Of a DNA stretch of 64,000 bases, positions 6,283 through 63,720 are shown piece after piece (the first letter of the stretch is position 1; each line of letters starts with the position of its first letter). Below the pieces are notes generated by a model. The model was not told the origin of the DNA, made no database searches, and saw only the letters and a program-made list of their open reading frames with translations. A program made the position numbers and the translations under genes. The DNA comes from a virus. The stretch is from positions 62,001 to 126,000 of the IMG/VR virus record IMGVR_UViG_3300028558_000016. One strand, written 5' to 3'.

Positions 6283-8385
6283 TTACTTCTTGAAACGCTT
6301 TGCTAACTCATCAGCTACTCCCGCCATGTAGTCATTAGAATACCCTGACATGTTCGGTTTTGCGGCATTAGCTGCTGTTTCGTTCTCGTTCAGTCTGATA
6401 AGTCCCACAGTTTTTTCCTTGTTTATCCCTGGTCTTGTAGCCCAGAAGTTGTTGATCTGGTAAGCTGTATCAAGTTTCCTTAACTTGCTCGCAGATATAA
6501 TTCCTTCTTGTTCTGCAACACTCATAGATTCCCAGATTGGTTTGTACTTTTCTGGCATCTCAGTGATGAACTTCGGTTCTGTTACGACTTTCTCTTCTAA
6601 AGCTGCATCCCATTTTTTGATGACATCAACTTCCGAGAAGTAAGCGCCGTTTTCCAACGCCTTAACGACCTTTTCTTTCTTGGTCTCGTCGAGAGTTACA
6701 AATTCTTTTCTTTTGTCTTCGTTAAGAAGCTTGTAGAAAGCGTATTTGCTCTCATTCAAATTTGAAGCTGTTTTCTGATTTTTAACAGTTTCAAGCAATG
6801 AATTTATTTTCGTGGTTAATGTTGAATAATCAACTTTAACAGTTTCTTTGTTTTCGTTTACCTCTGCTTTTGCAACTTCCGGAGTGGTAGTTTTTGGAGC
6901 ATCGATATTAACGTTCTCAGCTATATACTCCGAGTACGCTATGTTTTTCTCAATTTTTTCAGCTAAATATTCAGAATATGTAATTCCTTTATCTAAAGTT
7001 TCAGAAAGGTATTCTCCATATTCAATGCTTTGATCAACTTTTTCTGCGATATATTCGCTGTAATCAAGGCTCTTATCTAAGTTCTCAGCAAGGTATTCGC
7101 CATAAGCGATTGTTCTGTCTAAGTTCTCAGCTAAGTATTCTCCGTAGGAAATGGCTTTGTCTACGTTCTCTGCAAGATACTCTGCGTAAGAAATTCCTTT
7201 CTCAAGGTTTTCTGCTAAGTAGTTTGCGTAAGTGATACTCTTGTCTAAGTTCTCTGCAAGGTATTCTCCATAAGAGATAGACTTGTCAACGTTCTCAGCT
7301 AAGTATTCGCTGTAAGAAATAGTCTTGTCAAGATTTTCAGCAAGGTATCTCGAATATTCGATAGTCTTGTCTACGTTCTCTGCCAAGTATTCCGAGTATT
7401 GAATGTTCTTGTCTACATTTTCGGCAAGATACTTCATATACTTTTCAATCCTTTCAATTCTTTCTTCAAGAACCGTAACTGTTGAGTTAGCCTCATTTGC
7501 AGTTGCAGGATTTTTAATTTTTTCTTTTAGAGCTTCTAACTCTTTTTTGATGACCTGTGAGTATCCATTAAGATCATCCACAGTTACAAAATCTCTATTA
7601 GCCATTTCTGAGATGTTATTTTTTTCTTGTACTTCCAAAGCCTTTAAAAAAGCACCTTGGTGATTTTCATCTATTCTATATATCCTTACAGATTCAGAAT
7701 TTTCACCAATAACGTTATTTGTTACATCTTCCAATGATTCTGTAACCGTTCCGTTCTTCTTTTCGTTAAATTTCATGTTTACGCTCTCGTAGATTCTCTC
7801 GAGCTCTGCCTGTTCGAAACCAGGGCTTTCAACTAAGTCATACGTAAAGATCTTTTTAATCTGAACTTTTTTATTCTCCTTAACAACACCAGCTGCTCTC
7901 GATGAGATATGTAATGGAACTCCAGCCTTAACCAAGGCTATTGCCATTTCACCTGCAGGGTGTCCTTCAATAAGTCTTATTCTGATTTTTACATGTCTTG
8001 CTTCTTTATCATATTCTAATGCTTCTACAACGTGGGAAGCATTTTTTAGAGATGTTTCGAAGTTTGCAGGGTGATCAAGTTCTCCAAGGAGACTCTTCTT
8101 TGCAATTTTCTTTTGAAGATATTCAAGATGTGGAAGATATTCTGCCTCCTCGTAAATTCTGTGGTTATTATTCTCTTTTCCAAAAACTGCTGCTATTCCT
8201 TCAAGGATATAGCCTTTGCCACCTTCATTCTTGGATTTAACTTCTACATTGGCATCTGACATCCTTTCAAGGACAAAGACCCAATCCTTACCAAATGTTC
8301 CAAGATCGTTATTTTCGTTGTTTTTCATTGACGCGAATTTAGTTTTTAATGCAGTTTTCAGTTCTCGCTTTTTGTATATATTCAC
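6283..8385 (-). CDS. Prohead protease fused to a repeat-built scaffold (gp21 + gp22-like)
   Basis: 700 residues from GTG 8385; ATG 8328 is an alternative start. Residues ~50-200 carry the T4 gp21-type serine protease: a GELDHP motif with His105 and HISSRA with Ser161, plus TYDLVESPGF. Residues 316-497 are 13 head-to-tail copies of a 14-residue unit of the type YSEYLAENVDKSIS, a regular coiled coil. A helical C-terminal region follows, ending near NDYMAGVADELAKRF. T4 makes protease and scaffold from separate genes; here one polypeptide seems to do both, so self-cleavage is expected. It is the first gene of the capsid operon, with a TATATAG box upstream. Confidence 0.8.
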   Translation of the reverse strand: MNIYKKRELKTALKTKFASMKNNENNDLGTFGKDWVFVLERMSDANVEVKSKNEGGKGYILEGIAAVFGKENNNHRIYEEAEYLPHLEYLQKKIAKKSLLGELDHPANFETSLKNASHVVEALEYDKEARHVKIRIRLIEGHPAGEMAIALVKAGVPLHISSRAAGVVKENKKVQIKKIFTYDLVESPGFEQAELERIYESVNMKFNEKKNGTVTESLEDVTNNVIGENSESVRIYRIDENHQGAFLKALEVQEKNNISEMANRDFVTVDDLNGYSQVIKKELEALKEKIKNPATANEANSTVTVLEERIERIEKYMKYLAENVDKNIQYSEYLAENVDKTIEYSRYLAENLDKTISYSEYLAENVDKSISYGEYLAENLDKSITYANYLAENLEKGISYAEYLAENVDKAISYGEYLAENLDRTIAYGEYLAENLDKSLDYSEYIAEKVDQSIEYGEYLSETLDKGITYSEYLAEKIEKNIAYSEYIAENVNIDAPKTTTPEVAKAEVNENKETVKVDYSTLTTKINSLLETVKNQKTASNLNESKYAFYKLLNEDKRKEFVTLDETKKEKVVKALENGAYFSEVDVIKKWDAALEEKVVTEPKFITEMPEKYKPIWESMSVAEQEGIISASKLRKLDTAYQINNFWATRPGINKEKTVGLIRLNENETAANAAKPNMSGYSNDYMAGVADELAKRFKK
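6895..7440 (-). repeat. 13 tandem 42-bp coding repeats
   Basis: Thirteen imperfect 42-base units inside the scaffold part of the protease gene, each encoding 14 residues (two heptads). Consensus residues are Y-x-E-Y-L-A-E-N-(V/L)-D-K-x-I-x. Units differ at the DNA level mostly at third positions and at residues 2, 9 and 12-14, which shows they are an old, selected array and not a recent slippage product. Confidence 0.9.
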
Positions 8386-16165: not shown

Positions 16166-17626
16166 TTAGATTTGTACTACGTCGTATCTTTTATCTGAAA
16201 TGGTTTTCATCATCACGCTGTATGGTGTAAACTCTTCAAGACCGCCTTTAACAATTGATTGCAACAATGCTGGACTAAATCCAGAAACAAGTGCTGAACC
16301 TGTTTGAGAGAATTGAACAGGATTGTTATCCTGTCTTGCATGTACTTTCCACCAAACAGTTTTTGGAACAACATACACGATGTCAGAACCAGAAGCTTTT
16401 AATTTTGCATTTGCCTCAGCATATAATCTCACGACTAATTGTTGTGCTGTTGGATTATCCCAACCTTTGAATGCATCAAATTCCATATCGGAAATAACAA
16501 GCATCATTGTTGGCATTTCATCCTGAACAACTTTATGCTTAACTGCATGATCAAGCAATGAACGGTAAGCAGCTTCAATGTTAGTGTTGTAACCAACATG
16601 TCCACCGATTTGGTTCATTCTGCTTGGAAGATCTTTTCCTTTTAAATACTGAAGCGTTGGAACATCAGTAAATGTCATGAACGCATCTTTAAATGGTCCT
16701 TCGTTTCTTTCGCAAATATACAATGCCAATGACAATGCAACATCCAATGCGCTCAAGTTGTTGTTTCCACCAACTGCACGTTGCATTGAACCTGAAACGT
16801 CAGCCATAGGCATGATTCTTTCGGTTGCACCTTCAAGGAAGTTAGGAAGAGTTTCCCACTGTTTTTGATTAACAATTTTATCTCCACCATGTTTCAATGA
16901 CTTGATAATATCGTATGGATAAACTGCTCCAGCGTTTACTTTAACTCCAACTTCGCCTTTCTTAAGGGCTTCTCTATATTTCACAAAGCGGTCCGTATCT
17001 TGCTTGTGGAAAGCGGTCATGTATCTCGACATGGCCAATGATGGAACATGACTGTAATTAATTGCGCCAAATTCTTTAGCACACATCTTTTGCTCAACAG
17101 TATTGGAAAGCTTCACAAGAAGCTGTCTGAATTCTTTTGGAGATACCTCCATGTGTTTTCTTATCTTGTTAGCAAAAGTTCCTTTACGTGGCATCCACTT
17201 AGCACAAAGACCATGTTCGGATTTAAGCGCGGCAATTATAAATTCGATAGCTGGTTTTTCCAACTCAGTATTTTCAGTAATTAGAAGGTCATCCCATCTT
17301 CCAAACTCAGGAATAATGGAAATATTCTTCTCAGCAACATCCGGATGGTTTGTTGCAAGGAATAATTGGAACACATCACGGAAAACTTGACGCTCGCCAG
17401 AACCTCCACGCACATCACGTGCCCAGAATAAAATTCTCATTGCTGTCATAGGGTCTTCGCCGTATGCAGCAGAGAAAAGCTTAATAAGCCTTTGTTTATC
17501 CTGTCCTCTCATTGCACCAATGTCACCATAAAGGTCAACACACGCATTAAGGGTTGTGGTATTAGTAGTCATACCATTTTCGGTACGACCTGTCTCTGTT
17601 CTCATCGCGTCTACTAATCTTGTCAT
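16166..17626 (-). CDS. DUF2828 protein: Ro/TROVE-like helical repeats plus vWA domain
   Basis: 486 residues. Residues ~55-260 carry the DUF2828/TROVE signature (ILFWARDVRGGSGERQVFR, IPEFGRWDDLL, AKWMPRKG, INYSHVPSLAMSRY). Residues ~290-480 form a von Willebrand A domain with the MIDAS motif DVSGSM near residue 295 and a later MLVISDMEFD. Ro proteins form an RNA-binding ring that handles misfolded RNAs and Y RNAs and can cooperate with PNPase. A phage version may protect or sort phage RNAs or tRNAs. Its 3' UTR holds two structured elements with ACCA ends. A TATATTAG box lies upstream near 17655. Confidence 0.8.
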   Translation of the reverse strand: MTRLVDAMRTETGRTENGMTTNTTTLNACVDLYGDIGAMRGQDKQRLIKLFSAAYGEDPMTAMRILFWARDVRGGSGERQVFRDVFQLFLATNHPDVAEKNISIIPEFGRWDDLLITENTELEKPAIEFIIAALKSEHGLCAKWMPRKGTFANKIRKHMEVSPKEFRQLLVKLSNTVEQKMCAKEFGAINYSHVPSLAMSRYMTAFHKQDTDRFVKYREALKKGEVGVKVNAGAVYPYDIIKSLKHGGDKIVNQKQWETLPNFLEGATERIMPMADVSGSMQRAVGGNNNLSALDVALSLALYICERNEGPFKDAFMTFTDVPTLQYLKGKDLPSRMNQIGGHVGYNTNIEAAYRSLLDHAVKHKVVQDEMPTMMLVISDMEFDAFKGWDNPTAQQLVVRLYAEANAKLKASGSDIVYVVPKTVWWKVHARQDNNPVQFSQTGSALVSGFSPALLQSIVKGGLEEFTPYSVMMKTISDKRYDVVQI

Positions 17627-23380: not shown

Positions 23381-25252
23381 TTATTTTTTCTTTTCGTTCT
23401 TATCTTCCTTCTTTTCAGATTCAGTACCGATTTTATTTCCCATGCTCTCCAACAACTTCAATCCAAGCAATCCATCCATCGCGCCATTGTTGTTTTGTCC
23501 CATGATTAATATCTCCGGCATAACTTTAATTTTATCCTTGCCAATAGACTCAGTCACCTTTAATTGGGTGAAGTTGTCTTTGCCCATTGCATCAACGGAT
23601 AATTTATAAGCTTCTGCTGTTGATTTTCCAATTGCTAATATCTTAGCAGCCTCAGCAGTACCAGTCACAGTAATCTTTTCAGCCTCAGCATTCGCTTTCA
23701 ACTTAACTGCTTTCGCTTCAGCATCCGCAGAAAGTTCCACCGATTTAGCTTCACCAGTTGCTTTCTTAACTGCGGCATCCGCAATCTTCTCAGCAATTTC
23801 CACACCCTGATTAGCTTCAACTATTTTAGATTGCATGTCTGCAATTGCTCTCGCCTTCTCAAATTCTTGGCGAGTCTCTTCTGATTTCTTCTGAGCACCA
23901 AAAGTTATTTGTTGTTCATCAGCAAGTTTTCTATCGCTCAATGTCTTCATGATTGAAGCTGGTGGAACTATATCTCCAATCAATGTGTCAACACCTTCAA
24001 CATTATATTGGTGCAACACTTTGTCGATATGCTCTTTCGCTTCTTTCTGTCTTTCTGACCTCTTCTCTAAGAATGCAAGTACATCCGAGCTCTGTGCAGA
24101 ATTTCTGAAGTAGTTTCCAATTGTAGGTTCCAATACCTGTGACACGAGGTTATTCATGTTTCCAAATCTTGCAATAACCTTAGGAGCTTCTGTCATTGGA
24201 ATGTGTATGATCTGAGACACATCCAAATTAAATTGGAAACCGTCTTTAGAACGAACAGTGATTGTGGATAAATGCTTGTCTAAGTTGTGAGACTCATTAC
24301 GTGCATCTGCCCAATTTAAAACCAAGTTAGTAGTTGGAACAGTTTCAACCTTCATCGTGTATCTGTTTATCGGATACTTACCTGGTCCGAATGTTTCCAC
24401 CCAAACACCTTTTTGCCCTTTGGCAACTAAATTTCCATGCTTGAATGCATCACCTGTTACGTCTTTACCTTCTTCACCAATGAATGAGATAACAACACCA
24501 ACGTGACCAATTGGAATTTCAGTCATCTGAGTTTCCTCAATAACAACTGCCCATGGGTTTATATTATATGAACCAGCAAGAATAACTTGTGGCTGCAATC
24601 CTTTGTTTCCACCTGATTTTAAAAACTCATCAAACTTTTGAAAGTTATTATGTCCCTCAATAGTTCTACCAGCGATTTGTCCTTCTTCCAATGGAAGACC
24701 ATCCAATGTCGTTACAATACCAACTTTATTCTCAGCGATGTTTGTTATGTTAACAAGCGTTACTGTAAACAAATGGCTGTTGATACGATAAGAACCTGCT
24801 GTTATGTAAGATGTTTGTCTTCCTTTGTGTCCACCATTCTTTAAGAATTGATCTGCGTTTTGAAATGAATCACAATCAACGTGGCGTCCGAGAATTGAAC
24901 CAACTGGAATTGAAGCTCCGTCCTTCGCAAGAACCAATCCTATTTTTCCTTCCGGAATGATAAGGAAATTCTCTTGAACTATCTCATATTGCCAAGGCCA
25001 AATCCAGAAGTAAAGTCCTGGAGCAAGAGTTGTCGCTTGAAATCCGGATTCACCTTTCGTTGCTATGATCTTTCCATCAGGCAAGTTTCTATTTGAACCG
25101 AATAACACGAATTTTTTTGTCACTAATCCTATTTTATCTTCGGGAATTATTACCACGCCGAATAGTCTCAACACTAATTTGTAAAAAATTATTGCGAGTA
25201 TTGGAAAAATAAGCCACCAATAGTGTGCTGCATTATGCAAGAAGTCTTTCAT
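23381..25252 (-). CDS. SPFH/flotillin-like membrane scaffold protein
   Basis: 623 residues. One transmembrane helix (about 13-34) is followed by four beta-repeats, each ending in a (P/A)G-x-Y-x-IN type motif (LAPGLYFWI, ITAGSYRIN, ILAGSYNIN, FGPGKYPIN), then an SPFH core (~310-440) and a long Ala/Glu/Lys helix (~440-560) typical of flotillins, ending in a low-complexity tail. Such proteins oligomerise into membrane rings or cages and organise AAA+ proteases or microdomains. In phages they are unusual; it may reshape or protect the host membrane, or block host membrane defences (inference). Confidence 0.85.
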   Translation of the reverse strand: MKDFLHNAAHYWWLIFPILAIIFYKLVLRLFGVVIIPEDKIGLVTKKFVLFGSNRNLPDGKIIATKGESGFQATTLAPGLYFWIWPWQYEIVQENFLIIPEGKIGLVLAKDGASIPVGSILGRHVDCDSFQNADQFLKNGGHKGRQTSYITAGSYRINSHLFTVTLVNITNIAENKVGIVTTLDGLPLEEGQIAGRTIEGHNNFQKFDEFLKSGGNKGLQPQVILAGSYNINPWAVVIEETQMTEIPIGHVGVVISFIGEEGKDVTGDAFKHGNLVAKGQKGVWVETFGPGKYPINRYTMKVETVPTTNLVLNWADARNESHNLDKHLSTITVRSKDGFQFNLDVSQIIHIPMTEAPKVIARFGNMNNLVSQVLEPTIGNYFRNSAQSSDVLAFLEKRSERQKEAKEHIDKVLHQYNVEGVDTLIGDIVPPASIMKTLSDRKLADEQQITFGAQKKSEETRQEFEKARAIADMQSKIVEANQGVEIAEKIADAAVKKATGEAKSVELSADAEAKAVKLKANAEAEKITVTGTAEAAKILAIGKSTAEAYKLSVDAMGKDNFTQLKVTESIGKDKIKVMPEILIMGQNNNGAMDGLLGLKLLESMGNKIGTESEKKEDKNEKKK

Positions 25253-52065: not shown

Positions 52066-53532
52066 ATGAGTTTAGATAGGAAAATACTTACTATAACAAA
52101 ACCAACTATTCAAATTGAACAAATGGATCAACCAAACACGGCTGATCCAAACATGCCGCTTCTCTCTACTGAGAATAGGTTTAATCAAGCTGGAGATAGG
52201 TGGCCTCTCATTGAAATAAATAAACATCAATTCGGAGAAAACGACATCGATAGTTTTTATTTGGATGAGACTGGATTCATTCCAAGAATAAGAATAGGAG
52301 TAACAATCACAGATGGTTTGTTCATGTCCAAATATTTTCCTAAGGATGGAGATCCAATGTCTCTATTCATAAGAAGCAAGACCGACGAATTTAAGCCGAT
52401 CAGATGTGATTTTGAAATAACATTTGTAAATGCATTTCCAAGCAAATCAGAAACAGGAGACGTTCAAGCTTTCACGATAGAAGGAATTTTAAGAGTTCCC
52501 GGACTTTATGGAGAATGGTGCAAGACGTTTAAGGACAAAACTTCCTTTGATGCAATCATAGATATATGCAACGAATTGAAAGTAGGATTTGCAAGCAATG
52601 AGACTACAACAAACGATAAACAAAGCTGGATAAATCCATTTGATACATACGAGAAATTCATCAACGATGTTACATTAGCTTCTTACAAAGACGATGACAG
52701 CTTCTTTAAGGGATTTTTTGATCATTATTATTACATGAACTTCGTGAACATGAATAATCAATTTTCAGACGAGTTCGAGCTTGAAGATGCAATAGAGACT
52801 TTAACTTTCAACGATGACTTTTTCAAGGACAAAAGAATTGAAAAGATAGACACACAAATAATGTTGCTCAACAGTAATCAAGTTAGAGCTACTGGAAATT
52901 ACATCCAAGGATACACCCTTATAAATAAGGCAGGACAGGTTGTTATTGATAATGGTTATAGAAGATTCTTACAACATTATGATGCACAATTGTCTGAGAC
53001 AGATCCTCAAAAGAAATATAAAAGCTATTTCGTTGAACCATTGAGTACCAAAGGAACAGACAATAAAATACTTTTAAAGGGAAGACCCAAAGAAGATTTC
53101 TTTGGAAGCGGACCAGACAGAAGCAATTCCAAATTCAATAAACATAAGTGGTTCGGAACTCAATATGGATTGCCTGATGGAAATTGCCATGAAAATTATC
53201 TTCATGCAATAGTTCAAAATAGGCAGAACAATGAAGAGATCGAAAAGATGATGTTGAGAGTTAATCTTGGAAAATGTAACTTCAATCTTTACAGAGGACA
53301 AAGAGTTCCTGTATTAATAGTGAACGTTGCAAATCAATCAAGACAGAAACAAACCGCTGATGACTCACAAAGCGACGATAGCAGTTTCAGTTTCGATAAG
53401 TTCCTCACAGGATACTATACAATATATGGAATGACTTACTCTTGGAGTTCAAGCGATGGTTTGTTCGTTCAGGAATTAATGTTAACCAGAAGAGAATGGC
53501 CTATACCAAATTTCTCAGCCGTAGTTAATTAA
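52066..53532 (+). CDS. Baseplate hub protein, gp27/gpD-like (tentative)
   Basis: 488 residues. N-terminal ~150 residues beta-rich (PRIRIGVTITDGLFMSKYFP, EGILRVPGLYGEWCKTFKDK), then helices with SFDAIIDICNELKVGFASNE and a C-terminal beta domain. A 'phage late control D' style layout (two barrel domains around helices) and its position before the OB-fold spike support hub assignment. No sequence motif is decisive. Confidence 0.5.
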   Translation: MSLDRKILTITKPTIQIEQMDQPNTADPNMPLLSTENRFNQAGDRWPLIEINKHQFGENDIDSFYLDETGFIPRIRIGVTITDGLFMSKYFPKDGDPMSLFIRSKTDEFKPIRCDFEITFVNAFPSKSETGDVQAFTIEGILRVPGLYGEWCKTFKDKTSFDAIIDICNELKVGFASNETTTNDKQSWINPFDTYEKFINDVTLASYKDDDSFFKGFFDHYYYMNFVNMNNQFSDEFELEDAIETLTFNDDFFKDKRIEKIDTQIMLLNSNQVRATGNYIQGYTLINKAGQVVIDNGYRRFLQHYDAQLSETDPQKKYKSYFVEPLSTKGTDNKILLKGRPKEDFFGSGPDRSNSKFNKHKWFGTQYGLPDGNCHENYLHAIVQNRQNNEEIEKMMLRVNLGKCNFNLYRGQRVPVLIVNVANQSRQKQTADDSQSDDSSFSFDKFLTGYYTIYGMTYSWSSSDGLFVQELMLTRREWPIPNFSAVVN

Positions 53533-53544
53533 ATTTTTTAATAC

Positions 53545-54876
53545 ATGAATAACGCAATAGATCAAAATATAAATAAATTCTTCAAGGGATTTTTAACTAC
53601 CAAGCAAGGTGGATTCGAAGATCCTACTTATCTTGGATTTAGACTTGTTTTCGATTTTACACCTAACCAAAGAAATTTGGAAACAGGACAGACCGATGAT
53701 CCTTTATTTGCTGAAGACCCAACTCTCGAAAGCGCTATAAGATATTTGGAAGCCACTGGTTATCCAAATAGAGCTGGCATGCTTCGTACGTTCAAGGCTA
53801 ATTTGCAATACATAAACAAGGAGACTCCATGGTACTTTCAAACCATTAGCGGATTAAATGATATTTGGAAAATAGAATTTGGAGAAAATTTTAACCCGTT
53901 CAGAGGTAAAGATAAAGTTCTTGAGATAGCCTGTCTTGAAAGCATTGATTTAAGAATTACTGCTCTCGCGGATTTATATAGAAAAGCAACGTTCGATGCG
54001 AAGTACATGAGGTCTCTTGTTCCTGAAAATCTTAGATGGTTTACAGTGAGAGTTCAATTGGCTGAGATAAGACAATTCCAAAGAGTAAAATCTTCCATTG
54101 ATAAAATAAATGGTAATATAGTAAATCAAAATCCAAACACTGAAGATTTTACTTCGGGTGCAGCTTTAAGTGATTTAGCATTTACTGGAAGTTCAGCTTC
54201 CACAGATCCAGAAATAGAAAACATAGATAATCTTGTTTCGTTAATGGAATTTCATCTGTCTCATTGCACGTTTGATTTCTGGGAAAGTTTCCCGTCAGAC
54301 AAAGAGATTTCTATGAACGGAGAAATGGAGATGGCAAAACAAAAGTTTAAGATACACGTAGGACATATTAAAGAGCAACATCAATATAAGCTTCTTGATT
54401 TAGTGTTAAAAGATGGATTGACTGGTGAGAACGGAAACAACTTAAAAAGTATTCCAGACTTTGATAAGGCTTTCAACAACAGACCTGACAACATATTAAA
54501 GAATACTATAAGTGGAATTGGAAGTAGCCTTCAAGACAAATTGAACCAGATTGCTGGAGTTCCAGCAAATTTAATATCAAGAGGAGTAAATGCAGCAGGT
54601 GCAGCAATAACAACTCAAGTTCTTGGAAATGTTTATGATTTGAGAAACCAATCATTACAAACAATTTTCAACGCCTTCGTTGGACAGGCTCAGCAATTGG
54701 TTGGAAATGTTTTACCAACCATTCAAAAAGGAGCTCAGTCACTGACTGACGTGTTTCCAAATGTTCCTGGTTCTGATTTGATCACCAAATCAACCGCTAA
54801 CATGGGTAATGCGTTACCAACACCTGCAACTCGTGCAGCAAATCTTAATGAAAATCTCGGAAACGTTTATAAATAA
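53545..54876 (+). CDS. Tail/baseplate structural protein
   Basis: 443 residues. N-terminal 300 residues mixed (YLGFRLVFDFTPNQRN; HCTFDFWESFPSD). The C-terminal ~130 residues are Ala/Gln/Val-rich and may be helical, membrane-active or trimerising (VNAAGAAITTQVLGNVYD). Operon position between hub-like and spike genes supports a baseplate role; the exact part is unknown. Confidence 0.5.
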   Translation: MNNAIDQNINKFFKGFLTTKQGGFEDPTYLGFRLVFDFTPNQRNLETGQTDDPLFAEDPTLESAIRYLEATGYPNRAGMLRTFKANLQYINKETPWYFQTISGLNDIWKIEFGENFNPFRGKDKVLEIACLESIDLRITALADLYRKATFDAKYMRSLVPENLRWFTVRVQLAEIRQFQRVKSSIDKINGNIVNQNPNTEDFTSGAALSDLAFTGSSASTDPEIENIDNLVSLMEFHLSHCTFDFWESFPSDKEISMNGEMEMAKQKFKIHVGHIKEQHQYKLLDLVLKDGLTGENGNNLKSIPDFDKAFNNRPDNILKNTISGIGSSLQDKLNQIAGVPANLISRGVNAAGAAITTQVLGNVYDLRNQSLQTIFNAFVGQAQQLVGNVLPTIQKGAQSLTDVFPNVPGSDLITKSTANMGNALPTPATRAANLNENLGNVYK

Positions 54877-56551: not shown

Positions 56552-56819
56552 TACGCAACGAACTCTGATAAGAACTCAGAAAGTTCAGGACTGTCAGACT
56601 ATTAGTGACTTAGAAAAACTGTTTGATGAATTTAAAACTATTCAAGGCGCAAGCAAAGAATACAGTTCTGAGACACTCAAATTCAAATTAGAACAATTGA
56701 GATTTTTATTAAACAGCGAATTAAAATTCGATGATGTTCCATGGAACGTGATAACAAGATCACATGGCATAAGAGCCAAATGCATGGAATTATTTTACTA
56801 CGAAAAACATGGAGTTTAA
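56535..56819 (+). CDS. Small helical protein
   Basis: 94 residues, all-helical by pattern (TISDLEKLFDEFKTIQG; LKFKLEQLRFLLNSELKF). Not recognised. It lies between the hypothetical gene and the Thg1 gene, 14 bases before the latter. Confidence 0.45.
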   Translation: METLNDTQRTLIRTQKVQDCQTISDLEKLFDEFKTIQGASKEYSSETLKFKLEQLRFLLNSELKFDDVPWNVITRSHGIRAKCMELFYYEKHGV

Positions 56820-56833
56820 GCACTACACAAACT

Positions 56834-57673
56834 ATGTCCATAAAAGATATTTTTAAAGGAATTTTTGATAAAGCATTTCAGACTCTTGGAGACCGAATGA
56901 AAGGTTACGAGAAAGCAGATAAGAGAAAGCTTGAACCAAAAACTCCGGTTATTATAAGGCTCGACGGAAGAGCTTTTCACACATATACAAGAGGGTTTAA
57001 GAAACCTTATGACGAAGTCATTGGTAACGCTATGAAATACACCACAATAAAATTGTGCGAGGAAGTTCAGAACGTCAGGCTTGCGTATTCACAATCGGAC
57101 GAGATAACATTATTCTTGGCTGATTATGGAAATAAAAACACTCAGCAATGGTTCAACGGAGAAGTTGACAAGATCGTTTCATTGTCTGCTTCTATTGCAA
57201 CGTATTACTTCAATGAGTATATGGAAATACATCATTGGAGCAAATACCCAGAGAAGAAAAAACCTGCCACATTTGATTCAAGGTCATTCAACATTCCAAG
57301 ACATGAGGTCACCAATAATTTTATTTGGAGACAACAAGATGGAATAAGAAATTCCATATCGGGGTTGGCACAAGCTAATTATTCAGATAAAGAACTTCAT
57401 CGTAAAAGCACAGCTCAAATGTTATCCATGTTAGAAGATAAAAAAGTACATTGGGATGAGATGAGCACTTACAAGAAAAGAGGTTTTTGCGTAACTAAAG
57501 AATATTTCGTGCTTGAAGCTTCTGAACTCAATCTTCCTGAAAATGTGAAGGTTACAGAACCCATAATGAGATCTAAATGGGTTGTGGATGAGGACGTACC
57601 AATCTTTTCAGAAGATAAATCCTATATAGAGGTTTTGGTAACATTAGGAGAACTTGCCAATAAATATGAATAA
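56834..57673 (+). CDS. tRNA-His guanylyltransferase family protein (Thg1/TLP)
   Basis: 279 residues from ATG 56834 (the frame is open upstream). IIRLDGRAFHTYTRGFKKPYDE is the N-terminal metal-binding motif, AYSQSDEITLFL the second carboxylate motif, and FDSRSFNIPRHEV a further conserved block. Thg1 adds G(-1) to tRNA-His; Thg1-like proteins repair 5'-truncated tRNAs by 3'-5' nucleotide addition. No tRNA-His is in this window, so the repair (TLP) role fits better with the tRNA array 4 kb downstream. Confidence 0.88.
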   Translation: MSIKDIFKGIFDKAFQTLGDRMKGYEKADKRKLEPKTPVIIRLDGRAFHTYTRGFKKPYDEVIGNAMKYTTIKLCEEVQNVRLAYSQSDEITLFLADYGNKNTQQWFNGEVDKIVSLSASIATYYFNEYMEIHHWSKYPEKKKPATFDSRSFNIPRHEVTNNFIWRQQDGIRNSISGLAQANYSDKELHRKSTAQMLSMLEDKKVHWDEMSTYKKRGFCVTKEYFVLEASELNLPENVKVTEPIMRSKWVVDEDVPIFSEDKSYIEVLVTLGELANKYE

Positions 57674-61688: not shown

Positions 61689-61760
61689 GGTTCTGTAGTC
61701 AAAGGGTTACGATTTTTGGTTGTCAACCAAGAGGTGCGGGTTCGAGTCCCGTCAGAATCG
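61689..61760 (+). tRNA. tRNA-Asp (GTC), divergent D arm
   Basis: Acceptor GGTTCTG/CAGAATC (one wobble), anticodon stem TTTGG/CCAAG with loop TTGTCAA (anticodon GTC), T arm GCGGG-TTCGAGT-CCCGT, discriminator G73 as expected for Asp. The D stem is only 3 bp (GTC/GAT) with loop AAAGGGTTAC. No CCA encoded. Confidence 0.75.
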
Positions 61761-61762
61761 CT

Positions 61763-61833
61763 GGAGGAAACATGGGTTCGAATCCCATACGAAATGGAAA
61801 CACATTTCGTTCGTTTAGTGGCAGGACGTCTCC
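61763..61833 (+). tRNA. Candidate permuted tRNA: 3' half precedes 5' half
   Basis: 3' part: GGAGG (61763-61767), AAAC, T arm ATGGG-TTCGAAT-CCCAT (61772-61788), acceptor strand ACGAAAT (61789-61795), G96. Linker GAAACAC. 5' part: acceptor strand ATTTCGT (61804-61810), T8, D arm GTT-TAGTGGCAG-GAC, G26, TCTCC (61829-61833). Rejoined, this gives acceptor 7/7, anticodon stem TCTCC/GGAGG 5/5 (one wobble), variable loop of 4-5 and a canonical T arm. The anticodon itself falls at the break and cannot be read. Alternative: remnants of two tandem copies. Confidence 0.55.
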
Positions 61834-61848
61834 CCGAATTGGAAGTTT

Positions 61849-61919
61849 GGTCCGGTGGCCGAGTGGTTAGGCGGAGCTCTGCAAAAGCTCATACGGCGGT
61901 TCGAATCCGTCCCGGACCT
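61849..61919 (+). tRNA. tRNA-Cys (GCA)
   Basis: Acceptor GGTCCGG/CCGGACC, D stem GCC/GGC, anticodon stem GAGCT/AGCTC with loop CTGCAAA (anticodon GCA), T arm GGCGG-TTCGAAT-CCGTC, discriminator T73 as in Cys tRNAs. No CCA encoded. Confidence 0.88.
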
Positions 61920-62038
61920 CGTGGTGTAGAAGAGTATTGTGAAAATGGAAACCGTGCAAGGTGTAACAGTAAACAAAATGCTTCGTTCGTAAATGATTGG
62001 TCACATGAATTAATTCACTTGGCCATAACTGTAAAATT
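61920..62038 (+). other. Spacer in tRNA array, possibly structured
   Basis: 119 bases without a standard tRNA or a plausible ORF. GGTC-ACA-TGAATTAATTCA-CTT-GGCC (62000-62025) can fold. The string TTCGTTCGT at 61981-61990 repeats the one in the 5' part of the permuted tRNA candidate, and a GAAAATGGAAAC string near 61940 recalls its linker, so a decayed or second permuted element is possible. Confidence 0.35.
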
Positions 62039-62756: not shown

Positions 62757-62842
62757 GTTGCCGTATGCAAATTGGTTTAAGCGAACAGACTTTCAATCTG
62801 TGTTCCGTATGGAACGTGCGGGTTCGAACCCCGTCGGCAATA
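62757..62842 (+). tRNA. Class II tRNA with anticodon TTC
   Basis: 86 bases. Acceptor GTTGCCG/CGGCAAT, D stem TGC/GCG, anticodon stem ACAGA/TCTGT with loop CTTTCAA (anticodon TTC), long variable arm GTTCC-GTAT-GGAAC, T arm GCGGG-TTCGAAC-CCCGT, A73. A long variable arm belongs to Leu, Ser or Tyr tRNAs, while TTC is a Glu anticodon; A73 favours a Leu body. Amino-acid identity is therefore open. Confidence 0.8.
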
Positions 62843-62928
62843 CAAAAATAAAATAATAGGAGGACCCAGGCTGTGGACGCAACAAAAATGTAATTTCTCT
62901 TTACGAACAGTTTTGCAAAGAGAACGGA

Positions 62929-63720
62929 GTGGAATTTGAAATAGTAAAATCCGTAATTCCACATGATGACACAACTCTTTTCTGCTGTTCAGGAATGCAA
63001 CAGTATAAAAGCAAGTTTAAAGATCAAAATTATAAATGCACGATTTCAAACATCCAACCGTGCATCAGATTAAATGATCTTGAAGAAATAGGAGACAGCA
63101 CTCATTTCCTATACTTCAACATGATGGGATTCTTTTCTTTCAGAGAATGGACTGTGAAAAGAACAATTGATTTTTGGATGTCGTTCATTAATAAGATTGG
63201 TCTTAAAGTGGATTATGTTACAATCCATCCAGACAAAAAAGAATGGAAAGACTTTTATATTGAATACAATGTTGAAGTAAAAGAAGATCTCGAATGCACT
63301 TGGACTGATGGAGACCTTGGAGGATACTGCACAGAATTTTATGTGAACGGTATTGAGATAGGAAACATAGTCAATTGCAATGGTGATTGCATAGATGTTG
63401 GATTTGGTTTAGAAAGACTTGACATGCTTGTCAACAATAAAACAAAAGATGAGATAAGCGTGTTGAAGGAAACCATTGAAAAGATAATTGAAAGCGGTTA
63501 TGTCCCTGGACCTAAACAGCAGGGATACATCTTGAGAAAGCTTTTGAGATTGTTATATGTGAAAGGTGGAAGTATCGATCATGAATTCTTTGTCAAGGAA
63601 AAAGAAAGACAGGAACGATTGGTAAGAAAATATTCTTTGCTAAAACAAAAGCACAAAGACAAAAGCAAAGAATGGTGGTATGGAACACATGGAATTGATT
63701 TGAATGAAATGGGGCCTTAG
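62929..63720 (+). CDS. Minimal alanyl-tRNA synthetase (catalytic core only)
   Basis: 263 residues from GTG 62929, but homology-like sequence (SLYEQFCKENG) runs upstream in frame to 62893 or beyond; see the finding on its 5' end. Class II AlaRS motifs in order: SGMQQYKSKF, QPCIRLNDLEEIGDSTHFLYF (motif 1/2 region), MMGFFSFREWTVK, a TWTDGDLGGYCTEFY loop, then VGFGLERLDMLV (motif 3) and GYILRKLLRLLYVKGG. After WWYGTHGIDLNE it stops; the rest of the tRNA-recognition domain, editing domain and C-Ala domain are absent. Its stop lies inside tRNA-Ala (GGC). Confidence 0.82.
   Translation: MEFEIVKSVIPHDDTTLFCCSGMQQYKSKFKDQNYKCTISNIQPCIRLNDLEEIGDSTHFLYFNMMGFFSFREWTVKRTIDFWMSFINKIGLKVDYVTIHPDKKEWKDFYIEYNVEVKEDLECTWTDGDLGGYCTEFYVNGIEIGNIVNCNGDCIDVGFGLERLDMLVNNKTKDEISVLKETIEKIIESGYVPGPKQQGYILRKLLRLLYVKGGSIDHEFFVKEKERQERLVRKYSLLKQKHKDKSKEWWYGTHGIDLNEMGP

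What the first reader, a model, noticed from the sequence alone, without database searches (positions are those of the whole stretch)
61763..61833. Candidate circularly permuted tRNA gene in a phage tRNA array
The 3' half of a tRNA (GGAGG, variable loop, perfect T arm, acceptor strand ACGAAAT) lies directly upstream of its 5' half (ATTTCGT, T8, D arm, TCTCC). When joined in tRNA order all stems pair: acceptor 7/7, anticodon 5/5, T 5/5, D 3. Neither half has a linear partner: tRNA-Asp ends 2 bases before and tRNA-Cys begins 15 bases after. In the linear transcript the acceptor strands form an 8-bp hairpin with loop GAAACA. The break is in the anticodon loop, where phage tRNA repair (kinase plus ligase) works. 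I am not aware of a described permuted tRNA gene in a bacteriophage. The simpler alternative is two decayed halves of a former tandem pair; the loop sequences at the two ends (CCGAATT versus AATCGCT) do not agree, which leaves it open.
Basis: partly seen in the sequence, partly recalled or inferred. Interest (0 to 1): 0.85.

Follow-up and report, generated by a model that had tools for sequence, protein, structure and literature searches.

The report
Permuted tRNA mimic in phage array
Between two tRNA genes of a very large phage lies a small RNA gene built like a tRNA with its two halves swapped, the same layout as the known 'Y RNA' tRNA mimics, so it is more likely a tRNA look-alike (or the remains of a doubled tRNA gene) than a tRNA that gets cut and rejoined.

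Summary
At 61763-61833 a tRNA 3' half precedes its own 5' half. Acceptor pairing is 7/7 (an 8-bp hairpin), anticodon 5/5, T 5/5, D 4/4. No cross-pair of halves from 55 tRNAs of this 482-kb Lak-like phage has seven Watson-Crick acceptor pairs. The joined halves most resemble tRNA-Glu.

A permuted tRNA gene that is rejoined to decode is not supported: C33, no anticodon, no C74, and four tRNA-Glu genes already present.

The order T arm, acceptor hairpin, D arm is that of the Rfam Y RNA YrlA, a tRNA mimic bound by Ro60 and already reported in phages. I found about 27 such elements in 240 viral tRNA loci. Most have an outer stem and TACAGCAA, and all 10 TACAGCAA-type records searched whole encode a Ro60-like protein. 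This phage encodes one too (DUF2828/DUF7788; best fold match a TROVE crystal structure).

The candidate lacks the outer stem and motif and does not match RF02553. It abuts tRNA-Asp and tRNA-Cys, whose maturation would release it.

Best reading: a stem-less permuted tRNA mimic (0.48). Main rival: a remnant of a tandem tRNA-Glu (0.36). A rejoined permuted tRNA: about 0.07.

The parts
61689..61761 (+). tRNA-Asp(GTC); its 3' maturation would free the 5' end of the element
   Evidence: ARAGORN; Rfam tRNA 57.7 bits
61763..61767 (+). 3' strand of anticodon stem (GGAGG), here the outer 5' strand
   Evidence: sequence; fold
61768..61771 (+). variable loop AAAC (C = position 48, pairs with G15)
   Evidence: sequence
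61772..61788 (+). T arm, 5/5 pairs, loop TTCGAAT
   Evidence: sequence; model R2
61789..61810 (+). acceptor hairpin ACGAAATG-GAAACA-CATTTCGT, 8 Watson-Crick pairs
61811..61828 (+). T8, C9, D arm (GTTT AGTGGCA GGAC) and G26
   Evidence: sequence; R2
61829..61833 (+). 5' strand of anticodon stem (TCTCC)
   Evidence: sequence; fold
61763..61833 (+). whole permuted tRNA-like element
   Evidence: 40.0 bits with model R2 built only from other phages' elements; 38 bits with R1 made of artificially permuted tRNAs
61834..61848 (+). 15-nt tail CCGAATTGGAAGTTT up to tRNA-Cys; GGAAG may be the remnant of a linear anticodon 3' strand
   Evidence: sequence; inference
61849..61920 (+). tRNA-Cys(GCA); RNase P at its 5' end would set the 3' end of the element
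   Evidence: ARAGORN
16169..17626 (-). Ro60/TROVE-like protein (DUF2828 + DUF7788, phrog_850), vWA MIDAS motif DxSGSM

Best explanation
The element is a non-decoding tRNA mimic with the circularly permuted layout of the YrlA Y-RNA module (T arm, acceptor hairpin closed by a loop, D arm, with its own ends where a tRNA has its anticodon). It derives from a tRNA-Glu-like sequence. It lacks the Ro-binding stem of classical Y RNAs. Instead it would be punched out of the array transcript by maturation of its neighbours: 3' processing of tRNA-Asp makes its 5' end and RNase P cleavage of tRNA-Cys makes its 3' end, giving an 87-nt RNA with 5'-phosphate and 3'-hydroxyl, held shut by the GGAGG/TCTCC stem. 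It would then act on proteins that recognise tRNA elbows and acceptor stems, as a decoy or adaptor in the phage's RNA-repair and RNA-processing set (Rnl1, three Rnl2-family matches, Thg1-like, Ro60-like protein). Shown: sequence, layout, pairing, neighbours, these genes, and a recurrent class with the same layout. Inferred: transcription, excision, lack of decoding, and any partner.
For: The Rfam YrlA consensus has exactly this order, with TAGCTCA..GGTAGAGC after the hairpin. The same layout recurs as about 27 distinct partnerless elements in 240 IMG/VR loci, and model R2 made from 19 of them scores this site at 40 bits, the only strong G000 hit that overlaps no annotated tRNA (one search read). 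The two other elements without outer stem and motif, L281:7065-7132 and L299:2411-2488, also sit 0-5 nt after a tRNA 3' end. The phage encodes a Ro60-like protein and RNA ligases. The loop gives no usable anticodon and C74 is absent, against decoding. Among the other orphan T arms of G000 tested for a linear 5' acceptor partner all but one had one, so loose tRNA halves are rare in this genome.
Against: No Ro-binding stem and no TACAGCAA motif; no match to RF02553 at E<=10. No homologue was found: none in the syntenic array of the closest long relative, none with the same stems in IMG/VR. Folding energy is not better than shuffles (z -0.3). The stem-less class rests on three sequences. The two other records of that class show no Ro-like gene. 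No transcript data.
Confidence: 0.48

Rival explanations
1. Non-functional remains of a tandem duplication of a tRNA-Glu gene: the first copy lost its 5' half next to tRNA-Asp, the second lost its 3' half next to tRNA-Cys. The pairing is inherited from the two identical copies.
For: Both halves resemble one tRNA type, best match a tRNA-Glu(TTC) in relative G020 with the same GTCTCC..GGAGG arm. GGAAG 7 nt after TCTCC could be the remnant of the second copy's anticodon 3' strand. No conservation in relatives. Such arrays contain broken tRNAs, e.g. a tRNA lacking its anticodon arm in G005 near 52461-52512. Four other tRNA-Glu genes make a further one dispensable.
Against: All 21 stem pairs are intact, which needs recent decay. 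Two independent losses must both end at the anticodon stem. Other loose T-arm halves are rare in this genome. The same layout recurs in unrelated phages with clear function-like context.
Confidence: 0.36
2. True circularly permuted tRNA gene: the excised RNA is sealed by a phage RNA ligase into a circle and reopened at the acceptor stem by RNase P and 3' processing to give a working tRNA.
For: Perfect acceptor, T, D and anticodon stems and tertiary partners; linker of 8 nt lies in the 1-74 nt range of known permuted tRNAs; ligases present and the expected ends (5'-P, 3'-OH) suit Rnl1/Rnl2 (own knowledge).
Against: U33 absent (C33), no recognisable anticodon, 16-17 nt loop unless trimmed, C74 missing, redundant tRNA-Glu set, no RtcB, no bulge-helix-bulge motif seen at the junction by eye, and bacteria have no tRNA splicing endonuclease.
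Confidence: 0.07
3. Classical Y RNA bound by the phage's Ro60-like protein, with a Ro-binding stem that is not recognised here.
For: Ro60-like gene in the same genome; same module layout.
Against: Flanks are complete tRNA genes, leaving 1 and 15 nt; no outer stem, no TACAGCAA or GAATGC/CTTGTC motif. The genome has another candidate with stem and motif at G000:413638-413742.
Confidence: 0.04

Closest known systems
YrlA bacterial Y RNA (Rfam RF02553), tRNA-mimic module
   Same: Order T arm, acceptor-like hairpin, D arm, closed by a short stem at the anticodon side; known in bacteria and phages beside Ro60/Rsr.
   Different: No Ro-binding basal stem; embedded directly between two tRNA genes; not matched by RF02553.
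Circularly permuted tRNA genes of red and green algae, a nucleomorph and Thermofilum (Soma 2014, PMC3978253)
   Same: 3' half upstream of 5' half, short intervening sequence, break in the anticodon region like type II.
   Different: Those give working tRNAs with proper anticodon loops (U33) via bulge-helix-bulge splicing; none of that is seen here.
Phage elements with outer stem + TACAGCAA + permuted tRNA module (found here, e.g. L388:2124-2193, L418:3118-3186)
   Same: Same module, same kind of tRNA-array setting.
   Different: Those have a 7-10 bp outer stem and motif and co-occur with a Ro60-like gene.
Two-piece (permuted) tmRNA
   Same: Permuted gene in which the acceptor strands are joined by a short loop (from own knowledge).
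   Different: No tag-coding part; far smaller.

Membership tests
YrlA-type Y RNA | tRNA-like module in the order T arm, hairpin, D arm | tested here: met
YrlA-type Y RNA | basal stem of the RNA ends that binds Ro60/Rsr | tested here: not met
   flanks are tRNA-Asp and tRNA-Cys, no outer stem beyond the 5-bp anticodon stem
YrlA-type Y RNA | match to Rfam RF02553 | tested here: not met
   no match at E<=10 on the 236-nt stretch
YrlA-type Y RNA | Ro60/Rsr protein encoded in the same genome | tested here: met
   DUF2828/DUF7788 protein, fold match to TROVE 9kop E 3.2e-9, full length; PF05731 itself not matched
YrlA-type Y RNA | binding to Ro60 and PNPase | not testable with these tools
   needs pull-down
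circularly permuted tRNA gene | 3' half encoded upstream of 5' half, all stems pair | tested here: met
circularly permuted tRNA gene | rejoined molecule has U33 and a valid anticodon | tested here: not met
   5' side CC.., 3' side AATCGCT; joining the two sides at any point to a 7-nt loop gives no U33 (by hand)
circularly permuted tRNA gene | bulge-helix-bulge at the junction | tested here: not met
   flanks inspected by hand for a bulge-helix-bulge pairing; sequence
circularly permuted tRNA gene | circular intermediate and mature tRNA in RNA | not testable with these tools
   no RNA data
decayed tandem tRNA pair | remnants of the lost halves outside | tested here: inconclusive
   GGAAG remnant possible (about 5% by chance); nothing on the Asp side

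The most novel reading that the evidence does not exclude
A working circularly permuted tRNA gene in a phage, whose ends are made by processing of the neighbouring tRNAs and sealed by phage Rnl1/Rnl2 ligase, without any splicing endonuclease.
Probability: 0.07. Interest if true: 0.9.

Novelty: new variant of a known kind. Interest (0 to 1): 0.5.

Why it matters
It shows that 'half-swapped' tRNAs are a recurrent feature of phage tRNA arrays, missed by tRNA finders, and links most of them to Ro60-like proteins. In this small sample all 10 records with the TACAGCAA type that were searched whole encode such a protein, 9 of them from the little-known DUF2828/DUF7788 family. If the stem-less variant here is a real RNA, phages make tRNA mimics simply by placing them between tRNA genes; possible roles are decoys for host anticodon nucleases or adaptors for RNA repair. 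The idea is directly testable by small-RNA sequencing.

Tried and rejected
Exact and degenerate DNA patterns of the hairpin in IMG/VR: no hit. Neighbouring proteins as bait (YggL-like, 53545-54873): no relatives. AlaRS bait: one related but rearranged array (L025). BLAST of the element, and of the joined tRNA, against phage and plasmid records: only T-arm matches and one weak 71% hit. RtcB: absent. Group I intron: considered for the outer-stem class and rejected by hand (flanks far too short, no terminal G before the 3' exon). Spacer-structure idea (all inter-tRNA spacers form closed RNAs): shuffles give no general signal. Rfam on the candidate: no ribozyme or Y RNA. The YrlA papers themselves (Chen 2014, Wang 2018) were not held, so I rely on reviews and phage papers that cite them.

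Full report
CHECK OF THE OBSERVATION. The sequence is as described. Reading 61763-61833 gives GGAGG, AAAC, a perfect T arm, ACGAAAT, an 8-nt linker, ATTTCGT, TC, a D arm, G and TCTCC. Joined in tRNA order the stems pair 7/7, 5/5, 5/5 and 4/4, and the standard tertiary partners are present. ARAGORN gives tRNA-Asp to 61761 and tRNA-Cys from 61849 and nothing between. To ask how surprising this is, I cut all 55 tRNAs of the record at the anticodon and paired every 3' half with every other tRNA's 5' half: 4 of 2970 pair 7/7 and 5/5 with G-U allowed, none with seven Watson-Crick acceptor pairs. A strict scan of this 482,156-nt record and a 373,759-nt relative finds only this site, and in 2.37 Mb of relatives no second site with a GG/CC T arm was found. 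It is not chance.

WHERE IT IS. The record is a large virus whose gp23-like capsid protein is 46% identical to an uncultured 462-kb phage and about 41% to Prevotella Lak phages. The tRNA array follows a syntenic gene block also present in the relative G005, whose corresponding array (Asp, Ala, Cys, Glu, Glu, Ala) has no such element. The phage carries an RNA-repair set: Rnl1-type ligase and three Rnl2-family matches above cut-off, a Thg1-like enzyme 4 kb upstream, no RtcB. Such sets are described in jumbo phages (PMC7824862).

WHAT THE HALVES ARE. Among the tRNAs of the relatives the joined molecule is closest to tRNA-Glu(TTC) of G020, which shares GTCTCC-loop-GGAGG. The loop sides do not make a tRNA loop: CC on the 5' side (C33), AATCGCT on the 3' side, which is the end of tRNA-Asp plus one base. 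The base after the discriminator is G, whereas nearly all tRNAs of this genome encode C there. Four tRNA-Glu genes already lie in the window. All this argues against a decoding tRNA.

THE SAME LAYOUT ELSEWHERE. I fetched 120 viral loci with adjacent T- and D-arm motifs and ran the same detector. Besides ordinary tandem tRNAs it found several permuted modules with no linear partner. Most lie inside a 7-10 bp outer stem, and many have the motif TACAGCAA (or a one-letter variant) directly after the 5' strand of that stem. A second set of loci chosen by TACAGCAA and a T-loop raised the number to about 27 distinct elements. The relaxed detector has background: 9 T arms of ordinary tRNAs (669 tandem neighbours) also pass it, so single weak cases may be chance, but outer stem and motif were not used as criteria for the first set. 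On 19 elements the stems are 95% paired with changes on both sides in 19 of 21 pairs; since pairing was a selection criterion, this shows diversity more than it proves structure. Some elements keep a canonical anticodon loop on the 3' side (e.g. L418 CTGAAAA, L388 and L433 ATCATAA, L329 TTTGTAA); whether these decode is open.

WHAT THE CLASS IS. Rfam matches several of them to RF02553, YrlA, up to 50.5 bits (below its gathering score of 69). The printed consensus has outer stem, second stem, T arm, hairpin, TAGCTCA..GGTAGAGC D arm, closing strand: a circularly permuted tRNA. YrlA is a Y RNA whose basal stem holds the Ro60 homologue Rsr and whose tRNA-like domain binds PNPase and is modified by DusA and TruB (review PMC8394870); Y RNAs have been reported in phages (PMC12282133, PMC7765460). 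Four records with elements lacking TACAGCAA encode a TROVE protein. The TACAGCAA type goes with another protein: DUF2828/DUF7788 (phrog_850), the family of window 16169-17626. It lies in the same short locus in 8 of 15 TACAGCAA loci against 2 of 108 element-free tRNA loci (Fisher p 2.5e-7). In whole records all 10 TACAGCAA-type records searched have a Ro60-like gene, 9 of DUF2828 type and one TROVE, against 3 of 11 control records. AlphaFold of the G000 protein (pLDDT 84.8, 15 sequences) matches a TROVE crystal structure, 9kop, over its full length at E 3.2e-9, the only match below 0.001, and the DxSGSM residues of its vWA site are invariant. So this phage has a Ro60-like protein and, at G000:413638-413742, an outer-stem/TACAGCAA/T-arm element.

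HOW THE CANDIDATE FITS. A model built only from other phages' elements scores it at 40.0 bits. But it has no outer stem and no motif and does not match RF02553. With L281:7065-7132 and L299:2411-2488 it forms a small third group: no outer stem, 5' end 0-5 nt after a tRNA. The records of L281 and L299 show no Ro-like gene, which fits a Ro-independent element, or simple debris. I therefore do not file it as a Y RNA; it is laid out like the tRNA-mimic part of one.

MECHANISM. Shown: the layout, the neighbours, the enzymes. Inferred: processing of tRNA-Asp and tRNA-Cys, which in bacteria leaves 5'-phosphate and 3'-hydroxyl ends (own knowledge), releases 61762-61848; the anticodon stem holds it closed; the T arm stacked on the acceptor hairpin and the D/T elbow make it a tRNA mimic. 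What it binds is unknown. The rival, a recent remnant of a duplicated tRNA-Glu, is nearly as likely, because no relative shows conservation and energy is not unusual (z -0.3). The literature model for the origin of permuted genes is itself tandem duplication with loss of the outer halves (PMC3978253), so the two readings share an origin and differ in use.

VERDICT. Observation confirmed; the religated permuted tRNA not supported; closest known kind is the YrlA tRNA mimic, of which this would be a stem-less, tRNA-punctuated variant.

Noticed in passing
viral loci L238, L264, L280, L334, L347, L365, L376, L379, L388, L418, L421, L433, L434, L438, L445: Recurrent class: outer stem + TACAGCAA (or one-letter variant) + permuted tRNA module; all 10 such records searched whole encode a Ro60-like protein (9 DUF2828/DUF7788 type, one TROVE). 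L238 has three permuted elements within about 420 nt.
   Followed up: yes
G000:413638-413742 (outside the window): AGATTGCTT + ACAGCAA, T arm, AGGCAATCT: probable Y-RNA-like element of this phage without a clear D arm.
   Followed up: partly
window 62757-62843; G000 7373-7464, 386605-386692, 387507-387591, 414375-414464; likewise G005: Second copies of Glu, Lys, Asn, Gln and His tRNAs have long variable arms beside ordinary copies of the same isoacceptor.
   Followed up: no
G000 417828-417974 and c7775-7880; G005 24106-24242: ARAGORN reads tRNAs with 33-73 nt insertions in the anticodon loop, too short for group I introns, in phages rich in RNA ligases.
   Followed up: no
G005 near 52461-52512: tRNA-like gene with acceptor, D and T arms and CCA but no anticodon arm.
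   Followed up: no
G000 about 223297-223700; homologous 3' end in G005 near 131670: tmRNA-like gene missed by ARAGORN; by eye its tag reading frame looks unusually long (about 44 codons).
   Followed up: no
window 56741-57673: Thg1-like (tRNA-His guanylyltransferase family) gene upstream of the array.
   Followed up: no
window 62929-63720: AlaRS-like catalytic fragment inside the tRNA array, between tRNA-Glu and tRNA-Ala, conserved in other viral contigs (54-69% identity).
   Followed up: partly
all tRNA genes of G000: Genes mostly end N73-C-A rather than CCA.
   Followed up: no
G000 358020, 368276, 374278: Three tRNAs with anticodon CTA, possible amber suppressors.
   Followed up: no
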